From Kribbella capetownensis (GTDB taxonomy: Bacteria > Actinomycetota > Actinomycetes > Propionibacteriales > Kribbellaceae): DNA of 64,000 nucleotides. Under the pieces are notes generated by a model, which saw only the letters and a program-made list of their open reading frames with translations, searched no databases and had not been told where the DNA came from. Below, piece by piece: positions 46,293 through 54,132 of the stretch; position 1 is the first letter of the stretch, and every line of letters starts with the position of its first letter. The position numbers were made by a program, and so were the translations under genes. The stretch spans positions 496,001 to 560,000 of the forward strand of contig NZ_SJKD01000003.1 of assembly GCF_004331485.1 (NCBI RefSeq), given 5' to 3'.

Positions 46293-46646
46293 ATGCGCAC
46301 ATTCGATCTGAGCACCGGTGACGACCAGTACGTGAAGGACCTGCGGGTGGTCCGTTGGGAGCAGTACGGACTCGAGCGGGACCTGCCCTTCCAGGCGATG
46401 TGGTACTCCGTTCCGCCGGGTTCGGAAAGCCCGGTCGACCAGCACCCCGAACTCGAACTGTCCGTCGTCGTCGCGGGAACGGCGTACGTCGTCGTCGGCG
46501 GCCGCGAACACGTGGTCCCCCAAGGCAACGCCTTCCTGCTCAGCAGTACCGAGGCGCACGTCGTACAGAACCGGTCGGCCGACACCGAACTGACCGTCTT
46601 CAGCGCCTATTGGATGCCGATCACCGCCGAGCCCGGCCATGGCTGA
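46293..46646 (+). CDS. stand-alone cupin, probable N-N-bond-forming component
   Basis: The 117-residue single-domain cupin has metal-ligand candidates in 'VDQHPELELSVVVAGTAYVV' (about residues 48-67) and 'SSTEAHVVQN' (about 87-96). In hydrazine synthetases of the s56-p1 and triacsin pathways, a cupin is fused to the N terminus of a MetRS-like domain and performs the rearrangement that makes the N-N bond. Here the cupin is separate but lies directly before, and overlaps by 8 bp, the MetRS-like gene. ATG 46293 has GGAGGG 9 nt upstream. An in-frame GTG at 46173 is rejected because the extension has no cupin homology or ribosome site. Confidence 0.75.
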   Translation: MRTFDLSTGDDQYVKDLRVVRWEQYGLERDLPFQAMWYSVPPGSESPVDQHPELELSVVVAGTAYVVVGGREHVVPQGNAFLLSSTEAHVVQNRSADTELTVFSAYWMPITAEPGHG

Positions 46647-47899
46647 TCCGGTCACGGTCTTCACTTCCCCACAGCCGACCGTCAACGGCCCGTTGCACGT
46701 CGGCCATCTGGCCGGTCCGTACCTCGGGGCCGACCTAGCCGCCCGGGCCGCGCGCGCCCGCGGCGAGCGCGTCGTGGTCACCACCGGCCTCGACGTGCAC
46801 CTGAACTACGTGCTGACCCGCGCCGAGGGCGAAGGCGTCGAGGTCGGCGTGATGACGGCGGAGTTCCGCGACGACATCAAGGCCACCTCCGCTGCGACGC
46901 CGTTGCGCGAGATCACCCTGCACGCCTGCGCGGATTGCGGCCGGACCCTGCACGAGTCCTACCTGCGTGGCCTGTGCGGCGAGTGCAAGGCACCCGCAGC
47001 AGGCGGCGCGTGTGAACAGTGCGGCAGCCTCACTCAGGTCGACACCATGGTCGATCCGGTCTGCGGCCACTGTGGTGGCGAGCCGCGTCCCTTCGCCGCG
47101 ACGGTGCCGGTACTGCGGATGGAGGACCACCGCGAAGCCCTGATCGCGATGTGGTTGCGCGCCGATCTGCCACCCGCCGTCCGCGACCTGATCGACCGGA
47201 CCCTGCAGGCCAGACTCCCGGAGCTCGCACTCGCCTACCCCACCAACTGGGGACTTGAAGGCGACGGTCCGCTCACCGGCCTGCGGATCGGCCCGTACAC
47301 CGAGATCGCGCTCTCCGACCTGTACGCCGTTGCCCGCGGCATCGATCCGGAGGCCGCGGATGTACCGGAGTACCTGACGGCGCTGACCCAGGTCGGATCG
47401 CTGTGGCACTTCCTCGGCCTGGACAACGCGTTCTGGTACGCGTTGTACTGGCCGGCCGTCCGGGCCGCGGCCGGCGTCGCCCGGCTGCCCCTTTCCGGCC
47501 TGGTGGTGAACGAGTTCTACACGTTCGCCGGAGAGAAATTCTCGACCAGCCGGAAACACGGGACCGGCGCGACGGAATTGCTGCGGACCGAAGACCCGTC
47601 AATCGTTCGCTTGTTTCTGGCCTGGGACCGGCCAGACCGCTTCCGTAGTGATTTCAGCTTCAATTCCTTCCGCGCCTTCGCCGAGCGGGTCGAACCCATT
47701 GCTCGCCGGCGGCGAGAGCGTTTCCGAGCCACTCGATCCAGACCTTTCCTCGATCGAACTCGCCCGCGGCGAAAGCGCCTTGCGGCCGGACGGATTCGAT
47801 CCACCGCTGGCGGTCCGCAGTCTGCTCACGCTGCTCGCCGGCGGCATCCAGGAGACCGGGTCACTGCGCGCCGCGCTGACCGGGTCTGAGCAGGAGTAG
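46639..47899 (+). CDS. MetRS-like amino-acid-activating enzyme with apparent +1 frameshift
   Basis: This class I aminoacyl-tRNA-synthetase core has 'PLHVGHLAGPYLG' (HIGH motif, residues 20-23), a zinc insertion with four CXXC pairs (CADC, CGEC, CEQC, CGHC, about 97-145) and KMSKS-like 'KFSTS' (300-304). It lacks the tRNA anticodon domain, so it probably adenylates an amino acid, glycine by analogy with hydrazine synthetases. The ATG frame stays open to 47889, but after about 47690 it becomes Arg-rich nonsense. The +1 frame instead reads 'LLAGGESVSEPLDPDLSSIE' and ends at TAG 47899, inside the next ribosome site. A shift at GAA-CCC-A-TTG (47692-47701) restores a 419-residue protein. It may be a mutation, sequencing error or recoding. 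Confidence 0.78.
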
Positions 47900-47903
47900 G
47901 GCG

Positions 47904-50252
47904 ATGCGAGTCTGCGTCATCGGAGCCGGCATCGCCGGTGCCCTGCTGGCCTGGCGCCTCAGCGAGAGCGTCGAGGTCGACCTGGTGACCGGTGAGGCTG
48001 GGACGGATGCGACCGCGGCGTCGGGCGGCGGCGTACGTGGGTTCGAGACCCATCCGGTCCAGCGTCGGCTGGCCATCGAGAGCCTGACCGAGTTGTTCGA
48101 GGGTCTGCAGGAGCAGGCCGGCTACATCGAGACCGGCTGCACCTACCTGTTGCCGTCGTACGCCGGGCTCGAGGCGGCGGTAGCCGAGGTCGAACACGCC
48201 CACCCGGGCTCGACCGAGATCGTCGACGGCGCCGACCTTCGCCGCCGGGGCTGGCACGGCCTGCCCGACGACACGGTCGGCGTACTCGAGAAGCGGGCCG
48301 GCTTCATCCGGCCGGACCAACTCCGCTCGGCCGTGATCCGCCGGCTCGCGAACGGCCCGCGCAGCCGAGTGCTCAACGGTCCGGTACTCCGGCTCGTGCC
48401 GCACCCGGACGGATCGGTGAGCTGTCGCCTCCCCGCGTCCAGCCACCGGTACGACGCTGTCGTCGTCGCGGCCGGACCGTGGACACCCGGACTGCTCACC
48501 GGCAGCGCGCTCCCGGCCCAGCCGTATCGCACGAAGGCAATCCAGGTCGCCACCTACCGCGTCACCGGCGCCCTGCCGACCATGTTCGTCGACGAGACCA
48601 GTGACCTGTACGGGCGGCCCACCGCCGACGGCCGGCTGCTGCTCGGTGTCGACACCCACCACTGGTCCGTCACTCCCGGCAGCAGCCGGCCGATCCCGGA
48701 CCTGGCCGAGCAGGCCGTCCGGATCGCCGCCGAACGGCTGCCACACCTCAAGCTGTCGGCGCCCGACCTGATGGTCAGCAACGCCGATTGTTACGCCGAT
48801 CCGCCGGTACTGACCCTCTGGTCGGTCCTCGGCAGCTCACATCGGCTCTACACCTTCACCGGTGGGTCCGGGGGCAGCGTGAAAACCGCGCTGGCCGCAA
48901 GCCGGACGGCCGCGAGCGACCTGATCGGCACATCGCGCACCACCACTTCGCGGACGGAGAACAAGCGCATGACCATCACGGAACCAGGCCCGCAGCGAGG
49001 AACGCCCCGCTACCACACCATCGGTATCGGGGCCGGTCCCTCCAACCTCTCGCTGGCGGCGCTGTACCAGAACGTCACCACCGAACCGCTCGCCCTGTTC
49101 GACGCCCGCCCGGGCACCGGCTGGCACACGCCCCTGCTCTACCCCGGGGTCCGGATGCAGACCGGCTGGATGAAGGACCTGGTGTCGCTGGTCGACCCGC
49201 GGCACGAGCTGACGTTCCTGAACTACCTGGTCACCTCCGGGCGGCTCTATGCGCTGATCAACTCCCAGTTCGACTCGCTCCCCCGGATCGAGTACGAGCG
49301 CTATCTGGCCTGGGCGACCGAGCGCCTCGGCGTCGTGCACTTCACCTCCCGGGTGGACTCGATCTCGATCACCGACGACGGCTTCGAGGTCAGCGTCGAC
49401 GGTGTCCCGGCCGGCGTCTCCGAACACCTGGTCCTCGGTCTGGGCACGCGCCCGGTCCGGCCGGCGTACATCACCGAACTGCCCGCCGAGCGTGCCTTCA
49501 TCGCCGACGACCTCGGCGTACGGATGGCTGGGCTGGACACGGCCGCTCCGACAGCGGTTGTCGGCGGCGGCCAGACGGGACTGGAGTGTGTCCTGCGGCT
49601 GCTTGGCTCCGGCTTCACCGACATCCACTGGCTCGGCCGGAACCAGTGGTTCCGCAGCATCGATGACTCGCCGATGGCCAACGAGCTGTACCGGCCGTCC
49701 CACATCGAGTACCTGCAGGGCCTGAACCGCGGCAAGCGCCGTGAGATGATCGACGACTCCCGCTACAGCGGGGACGCCATCACCCCCGGCGGCCTGCGAG
49801 CGCTGTACCAGGCCAACTACGACGGCATGCTGACGCTCGGCCGGTTCCCGGTCACCCTGCTGCCCGGCCGCGACGTCAGGACGTCCGAACTGCTGGCCGA
49901 CGGCAACATCCGCCTGTGCTGTACGACGACCTCAACGCCGGAGGAGCACGTCGTACGGCAGGTGGTGGTCGCGGCCGGGCGCGAGCACGTGACGGCACCG
50001 TTCGACGACGATCTGCGGGAGCGGATCGAGGTCGACGACGACGGTGAACTGCTGGTCGAGCCGGACTACTCGGTGCGCTGGAAAGGCATGAACGGGCACC
50101 GGATCTACACGTTCAACGCGAGCCGGTACAGCCACGGGCTGACGAACGCCGGGCTGACGCAACTGCCGGTCCGGGCCGCGATCGTGCTGAACTCCATGTT
50201 CGAGCGGGAGATCTACCCGATCTCCGACGAGTTGTGCGCGGTGCAGTGGTGA
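47904..50252 (+). CDS. fusion: DAO-type FAD oxidoreductase + L-lysine/L-ornithine N-monooxygenase
   Basis: This is one open frame of 782 residues. Residues 1-350 are a glycine-oxidase/DAO flavoprotein (dinucleotide motif 'VIGAGIAGALLAWRL', 'VVVAAGPWTPGLL', C-terminal 'TFTGGSGGSVKTAL'). Residues 356-782 are an N-hydroxylating monooxygenase of the IucD/PvdA type ('IGIGAGPSNLSLAALYQN' FAD site, 'MQTGWMKDLVSLVDPRHELT', NADPH site 'AVVGGGQTGLECVL'). In hydrazinoacetate pathways these are separate: the monooxygenase makes N6-hydroxylysine, and the oxidase cleaves the lysine-glycine hydrazine. An internal ATG 48969 with GGAGA 8 nt upstream could also yield the monooxygenase alone. Confidence 0.85.
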   Translation: MRVCVIGAGIAGALLAWRLSESVEVDLVTGEAGTDATAASGGGVRGFETHPVQRRLAIESLTELFEGLQEQAGYIETGCTYLLPSYAGLEAAVAEVEHAHPGSTEIVDGADLRRRGWHGLPDDTVGVLEKRAGFIRPDQLRSAVIRRLANGPRSRVLNGPVLRLVPHPDGSVSCRLPASSHRYDAVVVAAGPWTPGLLTGSALPAQPYRTKAIQVATYRVTGALPTMFVDETSDLYGRPTADGRLLLGVDTHHWSVTPGSSRPIPDLAEQAVRIAAERLPHLKLSAPDLMVSNADCYADPPVLTLWSVLGSSHRLYTFTGGSGGSVKTALAASRTAASDLIGTSRTTTSRTENKRMTITEPGPQRGTPRYHTIGIGAGPSNLSLAALYQNVTTEPLALFDARPGTGWHTPLLYPGVRMQTGWMKDLVSLVDPRHELTFLNYLVTSGRLYALINSQFDSLPRIEYERYLAWATERLGVVHFTSRVDSISITDDGFEVSVDGVPAGVSEHLVLGLGTRPVRPAYITELPAERAFIADDLGVRMAGLDTAAPTAVVGGGQTGLECVLRLLGSGFTDIHWLGRNQWFRSIDDSPMANELYRPSHIEYLQGLNRGKRREMIDDSRYSGDAITPGGLRALYQANYDGMLTLGRFPVTLLPGRDVRTSELLADGNIRLCCTTTSTPEEHVVRQVVVAAGREHVTAPFDDDLRERIEVDDDGELLVEPDYSVRWKGMNGHRIYTFNASRYSHGLTNAGLTQLPVRAAIVLNSMFEREIYPISDELCAVQW

Positions 50253-50395
50253 CCGCGACAGTCCCGGAACCGCTGGTCCCCGACGTCGACGGGGTGTGTT
50301 TCCGGCTCGAGGTCGACGATCCGGCCGGCTCGTTCGATGCGGCGTACTGCCCTGGTCACCGCGACAGGCGACCTGGTCAGGGAGGCCTGAGATGA
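50249..50395 (+). CDS. 48-residue coupled small protein, unknown
   Basis: GTG 50249 overlaps the fusion gene stop (GTGA) and its TGA (50393-50395) overlaps the ATG of the ATP-grasp gene (ATGA). Such overlaps at both ends suggest a real coupled cistron. The product starts 'MTATVPEPLVPDVDGVCFRL' and has two cysteines (17 and 34). The first 35 or so codons have typical GC-rich third positions; the last dozen do not, so it may be a truncated remnant. A precursor peptide for the ATP-grasp enzymes is an unproven alternative. Confidence 0.45.
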   Translation: MTATVPEPLVPDVDGVCFRLEVDDPAGSFDAAYCPGHRDRRPGQGGLR

Positions 50396-51639
50396 ACGAA
50401 CGACCTCACCTGCTGGTGGTGGCCACCGGCATGCGGCTGTTCCGGGAGTACATCCTGCGGTCGATCGCACCGCAGTACCGGATCCACATGTTCCTGCACG
50501 CCGAGCCCACCTGGGAGACGGAGTACATCGAGAACTGGACCGTGCTGGACAGCACGCTCGACGCCGACGCTCTGGTCGCCGCGGCGAACGAACTCAACGA
50601 CAAGGAGGCGATCGACGGCGTGCTGTGCTGGGACGAGGCACGCATCCTGCAGACCGCCCGCATCGCCGAAGCGCTCGGGCTGCCGGGCGGTGATGTCGCG
50701 ATGGTGAACCGTTGCCGCGACAAGCACCTGACGCGTACGGCGCTCGCCGAGCACGGCATCCCGCAGCCGAAGTCGATCCTGGTGGCCACCGTCGACGAGG
50801 CACTGGCAGTCGCCGGCGACCTCGGCTACCCGGTGATCCTCAAGCCTCGCGCCCTGGCCGCCAGTCTCGGCGTGGTCAAGGTGAACTCGCCGGAGGAACT
50901 CGGGGCGAACTGGGCCTTCGCTCACGACACGACCGTGCCGGAGGCGCCGCACTACGACGTCAACGTGCTGGTCGAGGAGTTCGCCGACGGCTACGAGATC
51001 AGTATCGACGCGGCGATCTACCAGGGCCAGGTGACGCCGTTCTGCCTGGCCCGCAAGGAGATCGGCTACCCGCCGTACGCCGAAGAGATCGGGCACGTGG
51101 TGGATGCGGCGGATCCGTTGCTCGCCGATGACCAACTCCTGCAGGTGCTCGTCGATGCGCACAAGGCGATCGCGTTCACCGATGGCGTGACGCACACCGA
51201 GCTCATGATCACCGCCGACGGACCGAAGCTGATCGAGATCAACGCCCGGATCGGCGGCGACCTGATCCCGTACCTCGGTCTGCAGGCGACCGGTGTGGAT
51301 CCGGGGCTGGCGGCGGCCGCGGTCGCGTGCGGGCGTCAGCCCCTGCTGCTGCCGGACCGCACCATGGTCGGCGGCGTCCGCTTCTTCTACGTGGACGAGG
51401 ACGACACGGTGCTCGACTCCGTCGGCTTCGACTCCGACGGTCTGCCGGGCACGATCGACCAACTGGTGCCACTGATGGAGGTCGGCGCCACGACCAGCCC
51501 TCCGCCGGCGGGCACGCTGTGGGGCCGGATCGCCTACGCCACGACCGTCGCCACCACGGTGGACGACTGCCGCGCCGGACTCGACGCGGCGGAGAAGGCG
51601 CTGCGCTGGTCAGGCCATCCCAAGGAGCCGACGCCATGA
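50392..51639 (+). CDS. ATP-grasp ligase 1 (carboxylate-amine ligase)
   Basis: The 415-residue protein has the biotin-carboxylase/D-Ala-D-Ala-ligase type ATP-grasp fold: 'DKHLTRTALAEHGIPQPKSI' (about 112), ATP lysine in 'YPVILKPRALAASLGVVKV', 'VLVEEFADGYEISIDAAIY' and metal-binding 'KLIEINARIGGDLIPYL' (about 281-297). It should activate a carboxylate as acyl phosphate and join it to an amine, plausibly hydrazinoacetate to an amino acid. ATG 50392 has GGGAGG 8 nt upstream. The stop overlaps the MFS start (ATGA). Confidence 0.85.
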   Translation: MNERPHLLVVATGMRLFREYILRSIAPQYRIHMFLHAEPTWETEYIENWTVLDSTLDADALVAAANELNDKEAIDGVLCWDEARILQTARIAEALGLPGGDVAMVNRCRDKHLTRTALAEHGIPQPKSILVATVDEALAVAGDLGYPVILKPRALAASLGVVKVNSPEELGANWAFAHDTTVPEAPHYDVNVLVEEFADGYEISIDAAIYQGQVTPFCLARKEIGYPPYAEEIGHVVDAADPLLADDQLLQVLVDAHKAIAFTDGVTHTELMITADGPKLIEINARIGGDLIPYLGLQATGVDPGLAAAAVACGRQPLLLPDRTMVGGVRFFYVDEDDTVLDSVGFDSDGLPGTIDQLVPLMEVGATTSPPPAGTLWGRIAYATTVATTVDDCRAGLDAAEKALRWSGHPKEPTP

Positions 51640-52901
51640 CGTCGACCGACGAGAGCACCGGCATCTGGGAGACCATCCGGGATGCTCCGGTGCCGGTGAA
51701 GGCGCTGCTGGTCGGCGTGTTCGTGAACAAGCTCGGCTGGTTCCTGCAGGTCTTCCTGGTGTTGTTCCTGACCACGTCGAAGGGGTTCACGCCGGTCCAG
51801 GCCGGCACCGCGCTCGGCGTGTACGGCGGTGGCTCGGTGATCGGCCTGATCATCGGCGGATCGCTGTCGGACCGGGTCGGGCCACGGGCCGCGGTGATGA
51901 TCAGCATGTTCGGGATGGCGGGATTCGTCCTCGCGATCGCCTACGTACCGAGCTACACGGCCGTGGTGGTCGTGGTGGCGCTGGCCGGTGCGGTCGGCCA
52001 GTTCTACCGCCCGGCCTCGGCCGCCCTGCTGACCGAGCTGACACCGAAGAACCGGCAGGTGATGATCTTCGCGGTCTACCGGCTGGCCATGAACCTCGGT
52101 ACGACGGCAGCGCCGCTGATCGGCGCCGCCCTCGTCGCGGTGTCCTGGAACCTGCTGTTCATCGGCGAAGCGGTCGCCGCACTGGCCTACGCGGCAGTGG
52201 CGATCGTCGCGCTGCCGAAGCGATCCGCAACCGCCGTTGAGCAAACCCCGGACGACCAGCCGTCGGCCGGCGGCTACGTCGCCGTACTGCGGGACTACAA
52301 GTACGTGCTGTTCCTGCTGTGCATGTTCATCAACGCGGCGATCTACATGCAGTACTTGGCCGTGCTGCCGCTGCACATGAAAGCGGACGGGCTGTCGACC
52401 TGGTGGTACAGCGCGATCGTCGCGCTCAACGGCTTCGTCGTGATCACCTGTGAGTTGCTCGTGACGAAGGTGGTGCAGAACCGACCGGCGAGAGTGGTCG
52501 CGATGACCGGTTTCGTACTGCTGGGCGGCGGCCTCGCGTTCTACGCCCTGCCCGGCGGGTTGGCGATCTTCGTGATCGGCACCCTGCTCTGGACACTGGC
52601 CGAGATCATCGGCGGCCCGACCATGTTCGCGTATCCAGGTATGGCCGCACCGAAGCCATTACTCGGCCGGTACGTCGGATCCGCGCACGCCATGTTCGGC
52701 CTCGGGTCCGCCCTTGGCCCGTTCCTCGGAGTGTGGGTGTGGAACACGTCCGGCAGCCAGGTCTGGGTGTGGTGCGGGCTGGCCGGCGCGATCGGCGTCG
52801 TCCTCGCGTACTTCGGCATGACGCCCACGACCGCCGAGGACACCAGCATCGACGCCACTCCGGCCGCGGAGCCGGAGCTTGTAGGAGGACAAGATGAGTA
52901 G
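51636..52901 (+). CDS. MFS transporter of the biosynthetic operon
   Basis: The 421-residue protein has about 12 helices with MFS motif A 'GGSLSDRVGPRAAVMI' (about residues 74-89) and a basic central loop ('ALPKRSATAVEQTPDD'). It is embedded by 4-bp and 8-bp overlaps between the two ATP-grasp genes and most likely exports the product, giving self-protection. ATG 51636 is fixed by the ATGA junction. Confidence 0.85.
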   Translation: MTSTDESTGIWETIRDAPVPVKALLVGVFVNKLGWFLQVFLVLFLTTSKGFTPVQAGTALGVYGGGSVIGLIIGGSLSDRVGPRAAVMISMFGMAGFVLAIAYVPSYTAVVVVVALAGAVGQFYRPASAALLTELTPKNRQVMIFAVYRLAMNLGTTAAPLIGAALVAVSWNLLFIGEAVAALAYAAVAIVALPKRSATAVEQTPDDQPSAGGYVAVLRDYKYVLFLLCMFINAAIYMQYLAVLPLHMKADGLSTWWYSAIVALNGFVVITCELLVTKVVQNRPARVVAMTGFVLLGGGLAFYALPGGLAIFVIGTLLWTLAEIIGGPTMFAYPGMAAPKPLLGRYVGSAHAMFGLGSALGPFLGVWVWNTSGSQVWVWCGLAGAIGVVLAYFGMTPTTAEDTSIDATPAAEPELVGGQDE

Positions 52902-54132
52902 CTACACGATCATCGTGGACCCGCTGTCCACGGGACAGGAATATCCGGCCGCGTTCCGCGAGGCCGGCCGGCTGCCGGTCGCCGTACTCAGTGCTTCCGA
53001 GCCCCCACCGGCCTACACGACGAGCTGGCATCCGGAGGACTTCGAGCACGTGCACTACTTCACCGGCGACGTACAGGCGCTCGTCGAGGAGCTGCGGCAG
53101 TACGAGCCGGAGTACCTGGTGCCTGGTGCGGAGAGCGGGGTCGAGCTGTGCGACCGGCTGATCGGGCTCCTGGCTCCCGGCACCGGCAACGTCCCGGAGC
53201 TGGCGCCGGCACGGCGGGACAAGTGGGAGATGGCGCAGGCGCTCGCGGCCGCGGGTGTACCGCGGTTGCGCCAGTTCCTGACCGCGGATCCGGTCGAGGC
53301 GGAGCGGTGGCTGAAGGAGAACGACCTGCTCGGCAAGCGGCTGGTGATCAAGCCGTCGAAGAGCGCCGCCGGCGACGAGGTGTACGTCGTCTTCGAGGAC
53401 GGTGACTGGCGGGAGCGGTTCGACCGGGTCCTTGGCCGGACCAACAAGATGGGGCTGACCAACGACGCCGTCCTGATCCAGGAGTACGCCGAAGGAACGG
53501 AGTACCTGGTCGACACCTACAGCGTGGACGGGAAGCACGCACTGGTCGACGTGTGCCGCTACACGAAGGTCGGCCGGGGCGACAAGATCGGCATCTACCG
53601 GCGGATCGACTTCCTGGCCGAGGCCGACGCGGAGGTGCAGGCGCTGTGGCCGTACACCAGGGACGTGCTCGACGCGGTCGGCATCCGGGTCGGCTGCGGT
53701 CATGTCGAGGTGATGATGACGCCGGCCGGACCGCGGCTGATCGAGGTCGCGGCGCGGCCCGCCGGCGGTGGTCACCAGATGGTCAGCGACCTCGCCACCG
53801 GTGACAACCACATCAAGCGCACGGTGGCGCACCGGGTGCGCGGCGAGGTGCGGGACGGCTTCGACCTGGTCCAGCACCTACGCGGCATCTTCGTCATCGC
53901 ACCGCGGGAGGGGTACTTCCGCAACCGCGAGATCTTCGACGACATCGAGTCGCTGAAGTCGTTCCACTGGATGAAGATCCTGTACGACGAGGACGCCGTC
54001 GTCCCCGAGACCGTGGATCTGTTCACCTGCCTGGCCTGGGTCATCCTGATCCACAGCGACCCGGCCACCCTCGACGCCGACTACCACCGGGTCCTGGAGA
54101 TGGAGTCCGGCATCGTCATCACCACCGCCTGA
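52894..54132 (+). CDS. ATP-grasp ligase 2
   Basis: The 412-residue ATP-grasp protein belongs to a different branch from ligase 1. Its N domain ends 'PEYLVPGAESGVELCDRL'; next come 'DKWEMAQALAAAGVPRLRQF', ATP lysine 'RLVIKPSKSAAGDEVYVV', 'VLIQEYAEGTEYLVDTYSVD' and a variant metal motif 'RLIEVAARPAGGG' (Ala-Ala where N-x is usual). It may make a second amide bond or act on a different carboxylate. GGAGG 5 nt before ATG 52894 is strong. It is the last gene, followed by a 17-bp terminator. Confidence 0.83.
   Translation: MSSYTIIVDPLSTGQEYPAAFREAGRLPVAVLSASEPPPAYTTSWHPEDFEHVHYFTGDVQALVEELRQYEPEYLVPGAESGVELCDRLIGLLAPGTGNVPELAPARRDKWEMAQALAAAGVPRLRQFLTADPVEAERWLKENDLLGKRLVIKPSKSAAGDEVYVVFEDGDWRERFDRVLGRTNKMGLTNDAVLIQEYAEGTEYLVDTYSVDGKHALVDVCRYTKVGRGDKIGIYRRIDFLAEADAEVQALWPYTRDVLDAVGIRVGCGHVEVMMTPAGPRLIEVAARPAGGGHQMVSDLATGDNHIKRTVAHRVRGEVRDGFDLVQHLRGIFVIAPREGYFRNREIFDDIESLKSFHWMKILYDEDAVVPETVDLFTCLAWVILIHSDPATLDADYHRVLEMESGIVITTA

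What the first reader, a model, noticed from the sequence alone, without database searches (positions are those of the whole stretch)
47680..47899. Apparent +1 frameshift near the end of the MetRS-like gene
The ATG frame degenerates into Arg-rich sequence after about 47690. The +1 frame gives a normal-looking acidic/hydrophobic tail with GC-rich third positions, ending at TAG 47899 exactly in the next gene's ribosome site. The switch point GAA-CCC-A-TTG is a proline codon followed by A, a shift-prone context. It could be a disabling mutation, a sequencing error or true recoding.
Basis: seen in the sequence. Interest (0 to 1): 0.7.

Follow-up and report, generated by a model that had tools for sequence, protein, structure and literature searches.

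The report
Broken hydrazine-enzyme gene in one Kribbella
The frameshift is really in the sequence, and it is one of two separate lesions in a gene that is intact in all 18 relatives carrying it, so this is an ordinary, recently broken gene in a nitrogen-nitrogen-bond-making cluster and not a case of programmed recoding.

Summary
The ATG frame of the MetRS-like gene (46639-47889) runs into an Arg-rich tail after GAA 47692-47694. The +1 frame to TAG 47899 is the conserved C-terminus of its orthologs. The window has one extra C in CCC 47695-47697 (GAACCCATTG, against GAA-CCATTG in the nearest relatives). It removes 32 residues that are present in all 18 other Kribbella orthologs, and its junction lies at a CACCT microhomology. 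The gene has also changed at 6 sites invariant in 16 orthologs; its closest relative, K. pittospori, has changed at none. Neighbouring genes are intact and constrained. In 317 kb of coding sequence aligned to K. pittospori I found only one other clear internal frame break, in a gene that also carries a large deletion, so a stray base-call error is unlikely. The gene sits between a zinc-site cupin (46293-46646) and a fused FAD oxidase/lysine N-hydroxylase (47904-50252). That is the gene set of known hydrazine synthetase clusters (PyrN, Spb40, Tri28, RHS1), in which the MetRS-like part activates an amino acid without tRNA. Best reading: a recent loss-of-function pseudogene that probably silences the cluster. 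Recoding is unsupported. Interest is low.

The parts
46293..46646 (+). Intact cupin (117 aa) with the motif D-x-H-x3-E-x33-H, the same spacing as the zinc ligands D63/H65/E69/H103 of the N-N-forming cupin RHS1
   Evidence: Pfam Cupin_2 4e-11; ligand spacing read from the sequence against PMC8664883; 98.5% identical to K. pittospori; single copy in the genome
46639..47889 (+). MetRS-like gene, now a pseudogene: the ATG frame as it stands (416 aa), with an Arg-rich out-of-frame tail from 47695
46881..46882 (+). Junction of a 96-bp in-frame deletion (32 aa, residues 82-113 of the K. pittospori ortholog); CACCT microhomology at 46884-46888
   Evidence: DNA alignment with 17 homologs; 32 gap positions in every ortholog; junction absent from the other genomes searched
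47695..47697 (+). CCC run holding the one inserted C (+1 frameshift)
   Evidence: GAACCCATTG in the window, GAA-CCATTG in L009 and L012; GAACCCATTG found only in the window's own genome among 82 loci
47696..47899 (+). Orphaned C-terminal coding sequence in the +1 frame, ending at the ancestral stop TAG 47897-47899 inside the next gene's ribosome-binding region
47904..50252 (+). Intact fused gene (782 aa): FAD-dependent oxidoreductase (DAO) plus lysine/ornithine N-hydroxylase
   Evidence: Pfam DAO 8e-31 and Lys_Orn_oxgnase 9e-64; 97.8% identical to K. pittospori, also fused there
50389..51639 (+). Intact ATP-grasp ligase of the same putative cluster
51639..52901 (+). Intact MFS transporter of the same putative cluster
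52894..54132 (+). Second intact ATP-grasp ligase of the same putative cluster

Best explanation
This is a recently inactivated copy of the stand-alone MetRS-like (amino-acid-activating) component of a split hydrazine synthetase, in one Kribbella lineage. Two separate lesions lie in the gene. One is a 96-bp in-frame deletion across a short CACCT repeat that removes 32 residues of the N-terminal catalytic region. The other is a one-base C insertion in a CC run (CC to CCC) that replaces the C-terminal helical tail by an Arg-rich stretch. Shown: the lesions, the intact orthologs, the intact and constrained neighbours. Inferred: that the product is inactive, that the intact cupin therefore gets no O-aminoacyl-hydroxylysine ester to rearrange, and that the N-N-bond pathway is off or depends on another supplier. 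The order of the two lesions is unknown.
For: The 18 other Kribbella genomes with the gene have one uninterrupted frame of normal length; all carry the 32 residues missing here, and those aligned encode the tail in frame 0. The single inserted C and the 96-bp gap are directly visible in the alignment. Six sites invariant in 16 orthologs are changed in the window, including Q55L and W307R; the closest relative L007 has none (6/179 vs 0/179, Fisher p = 0.03). On the window branch the gene has 17 synonymous and 17 nonsynonymous changes; cluster neighbours sum to 57 and 24 (p = 0.054). Neighbours remain constrained (Ka/Ks to L007: cupin 0.02, DAO-NMO 0.08; MetRS-like 0.18). Among about 317 kb of coding sequence aligned to K. 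pittospori, inspection left one other clear internal frame break, itself beside a large deletion.
Against: Relaxation of selection is only borderline significant, and the tail still reads as normal coding sequence, so the loss is recent or the gene could retain some use. No reads or second assembly were available. No expression or activity data exist. The AlphaFold model made to place the deletion was of low confidence (mean pLDDT 40.5), so the structural effect rests on sequence alignment to solved MetRS-like proteins.
Confidence: 0.9

Rival explanations
1. The one-base insertion is a sequencing or assembly error; only the 96-bp deletion is real, and the gene encodes an internally shortened protein with its normal tail.
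For: It is a single extra base in a short C run, the tail still has coding character, and no reads could be checked.
Against: The error background is low: in 317 kb of aligned coding sequence the only other clear internal break also sits beside a large deletion. A three-base run is a poor homopolymer artefact candidate. The gene independently carries the deletion and invariant-site changes.
Confidence: 0.07
2. Programmed +1 ribosomal frameshifting at CCC-A restores the tail.
For: CCC followed by A is a plausible +1 slip context (general knowledge), and the +1 tail is conserved coding sequence.
Against: The aligned orthologs encode the tail in frame 0 with no extra base at the site. The site is private to this genome. 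The product would still lack 32 conserved residues.
Confidence: 0.01
3. The truncated, altered protein is still functional or has taken a new role, and the cluster stays on; or the MetRS-like paralog elsewhere in the genome (G000 contig C7) supplies the ester in trans to the intact cupin.
For: Neighbours are intact and constrained. MetRS and cupin parts can act in trans (PMC8664883). An intact paralog of 53% identity exists.
Against: 32 residues with nine invariant positions are gone and the C-terminal domain is replaced. The paralog has no recognised cupin or N-hydroxylase beside it and occurs in several relatives alongside the intact gene, so it probably has its own job.
Confidence: 0.04

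Closest known systems
Split and fused cupin/MetRS-like hydrazine synthetases: PyrN, Spb40, Tri28, RHS1 with its stand-alone MetRS-like partner, Dpn5-Dpn6, Afn8-Afn9 (PMC8664883, PMC11705231)
   Same: Same three-gene set (N-hydroxylase, cupin, MetRS-like), stand-alone MetRS-like protein beside a small cupin, and the same spacing of the four zinc ligands in the cupin as in RHS1.
   Different: The MetRS-like gene is broken in this genome. The N-hydroxylase is fused behind a DAO-type oxidase. The product and the amino acid substrate are unknown.
Intact ortholog in Kribbella pittospori NRRL B-24813 (L007)
   Same: Same cluster order; cupin 98.5%, oxidase/hydroxylase 97.8% identical; the tail of the MetRS-like protein is 88% identical to the window's +1 frame.
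   Different: Has the 96 bp and lacks the extra C; open frame throughout.
Methionyl-tRNA synthetase (tRNA-synt_1g)
   Same: Class I catalytic fold by sequence, Zn/CP region, KFSTS motif; Pfam 3e-35, solved MetRS-like proteins 3e-43 for the ortholog.
   Different: Scores far below every NCBIfam MetRS cut-off (124 against 551 bits). A separate longer MetRS-type gene lies elsewhere in the genome (L004, L082:16677-18572).

Membership tests
Pseudogene (recent loss of function) | Frame-disrupting or domain-removing lesions absent from orthologs | tested here: met
   +1 base at 47695-47697 and a 96-bp deletion at 46881/46882, against 18 intact orthologs
Pseudogene (recent loss of function) | Relaxed selection relative to neighbours | tested here: inconclusive
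   17 syn:17 nonsyn vs 57:24, p = 0.054; 6 changes at invariant sites vs 0 in the closest relative, p = 0.03
Pseudogene (recent loss of function) | No functional product | not testable with these tools
   needs expression and assay
Cupin/MetRS-like hydrazine synthetase cluster | Neighbouring lysine/ornithine N-hydroxylase | tested here: met
   PF13434 9e-64 in 47904-50252
Cupin/MetRS-like hydrazine synthetase cluster | Cupin with the D-x-H-x3-E-x33-H zinc site of RHS1 and the critical Glu | tested here: met
   DQHPELE...AH in 46293-46646 has offsets +2, +6, +40, as RHS1 63/65/69/103 (sequence; ligands). The full alignment to RHS1 (5uqp) is weak, E = 0.035
Cupin/MetRS-like hydrazine synthetase cluster | Intact MetRS-like domain able to activate an amino acid | tested here: not met
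   Two lesions in this genome; the orthologs are intact
Cupin/MetRS-like hydrazine synthetase cluster | Forms an N-N bond in vitro | not testable with these tools
   no assay
Programmed ribosomal frameshifting | Shift site and overlapping frames conserved among orthologs | tested here: not met

The most novel reading that the evidence does not exclude
The strain keeps the N-N-bond pathway running with an intact cupin while its dedicated MetRS-like partner is broken, for example because the C7 paralog feeds the cupin in trans and changes which amino acid is joined.
Probability: 0.03. Interest if true: 0.4.

Novelty: new member of a known kind. Interest (0 to 1): 0.15.

Why it matters
It warns that this strain's hydrazine-type cluster should not be expected to make its product, although an automatic annotation would show an open 416-aa MetRS-like gene. 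It also removes a tempting false example of recoding. The 18 intact Kribbella clusters are the better targets for finding the metabolite.

Tried and rejected
Programmed recoding was rejected because the site and the frame overlap are private to this genome. The idea that the DAO/N-hydroxylase gene was also a fusion caused by a lesion was rejected: it is fused in the relatives examined. Several apparent frame breaks in the K. pittospori comparison proved to be upstream over-extensions of ORFs or antisense frames. An AlphaFold model of the intact ortholog from six sequences had mean pLDDT 40.5 and was not used. Two family scans failed on a wrong coordinate and were repeated. A literature search for Kribbella plus hydrazine gave nothing relevant.

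Full report
What was checked. The window lies at G000:C25:496001-560000, an actinobacterial genome whose closest named relatives are all Kribbella. The MetRS-like ORF runs from ATG 46639 to TGA 47889, 416 aa. Up to codon 352 (GAA 47692-47694) it has normal high-GC coding character (0.70/0.51/0.86 G+C at positions 1/2/3). Beyond that the same frame has 0.80/0.74/0.55 and 22 Arg in 65 residues, while the frame ending at TAG 47899 has 0.74/0.52/0.80.

Homologs. A protein search of 38 genomes of the genus found 19 with a close match (E below 1e-120), this genome included, and a scan of genome contigs gave six named Kribbella loci. Stop-to-stop frames in all 18 other genomes are single and uninterrupted. 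The DNA alignment shows two differences of length that are private to the window. First, GAACCCATTGCT stands where the nearest relatives have GAA-CCATTGCT: one extra C. From there to the stop the window's +1 frame is the ordinary C-terminus (88% identical to K. pittospori). Second, 96 bp (32 codons) present in every ortholog and in the paralog are missing after 46881. In K. pittospori the two ends of the missing stretch share CACCT (GGACACCTACG ... CGTCACCTCCG), and the window's junction reads GGCCACCTCCG. That fits a deletion between short direct repeats (inference). The exact sequence GAACCCATTG occurs in no relative's locus, and no relative aligns continuously across the deletion junction.

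State of the gene. The missing residues (82-113 of the ortholog) include nine that are invariant in 16 orthologs, and align without gaps to a solved MetRS-like protein. Six further invariant residues are substituted (A30G, Q55L, G117A, R176H, W307R, A402S), against none in the closest relative (p = 0.03). On the window's branch the gene shows 17 synonymous and 17 nonsynonymous changes; five cluster neighbours together show 57 and 24 (p = 0.054). The neighbours are intact. Their Ka/Ks to K. pittospori is 0.02 (cupin), 0.08 (oxidase/hydroxylase) and 0.10 (ATP-grasp), against 0.18 for this gene. The relaxation is modest, so the loss is recent.

Sequencing error. About 400 kb around the window was compared with the matching region of K. 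pittospori. Mechanical frame breaks were listed and inspected; most fall in over-extended ORF starts, antisense frames or mutually compensating gaps. This sorting was by eye from the alignments, so the count is approximate. The only other clear internal break, in a hydrolase-like gene near G000:C25:627000, sits beside a deletion of about 800 bp. Isolated base errors are therefore rare in this assembly. This makes an error at exactly a gene with another lesion unlikely, but only reads can settle it.

What the gene is. The gene is flanked by a cupin (46293-46646) and a fused DAO oxidase/lysine N-hydroxylase (47904-50252), then ATP-grasp, MFS and ATP-grasp genes. N-hydroxylase, cupin and MetRS-like protein are the known gene set of hydrazine synthetases. 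There the MetRS-like part makes an O-aminoacyl ester of N6-hydroxylysine without tRNA, and the zinc cupin rearranges it to an N-N bond; both parts are needed and they work when separate (PMC8664883; PMC11705231). The window's cupin has D-x-H-x3-E-x33-H, the spacing of the zinc ligands of RHS1 (63, 65, 69, 103). The cupin and the MetRS-like gene occur in exactly the same 19 of 38 Kribbella genomes, which supports a shared function. Membership of the cluster in the hydrazine synthetase family is therefore likely but not assayed.

Conclusion. Most likely the gene is a recent pseudogene, and the pathway in this strain is off at the amino-acid activation step (the last part is inference). The frame ends at 47889, close to the next start at 47904, so the insertion need not shut off the downstream genes, which may be why they still look healthy (inference). 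Recoding has no comparative support.

Noticed in passing
window 47904-50252: A DAO-type FAD oxidase and a lysine/ornithine N-hydroxylase are fused in one 782-aa frame; corresponding frames of 790-809 aa in the Kribbella relatives printed are fused too. It would couple the first step and a possible hydrazine-cleaving step of the pathway in one protein.
   Followed up: partly
L082:8664-10070 (G000 contig C7): An intact MetRS-like paralog (53% identical) without a recognised cupin or N-hydroxylase beside it, followed by a small ORF; also present in about nine other Kribbella genomes. Its role is unknown.
   Followed up: partly
L076:7010-7642 (about G000:C25:627000): A secreted-hydrolase-like gene that has an internal deletion of about 800 bp and a 1-bp insertion relative to K. 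pittospori: another apparent pseudogene in this genome.
   Followed up: partly
window 47702-47716: Five substitutions relative to K. pittospori fall within 14 bp just after the inserted C, and turn the stretch into a perfect short inverted repeat CTCGCC-GGC-GGCGAG. This could be a templated mutation event, but the region is variable among relatives.
   Followed up: no
window 46293-46646: The cupin has a close solved relative, PDB 5j7m (E 4e-54), listed only as a conserved barrel domain protein; the neighbourhood here suggests an N-N-forming cupin.
   Followed up: no
L007:6001-7353: The best solved relatives of the MetRS-like ortholog, 9l8v and 9vq4, are labelled methionine-tRNA ligase but outscore the E. 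coli enzyme and may themselves be biosynthetic MetRS-like proteins.
   Followed up: no
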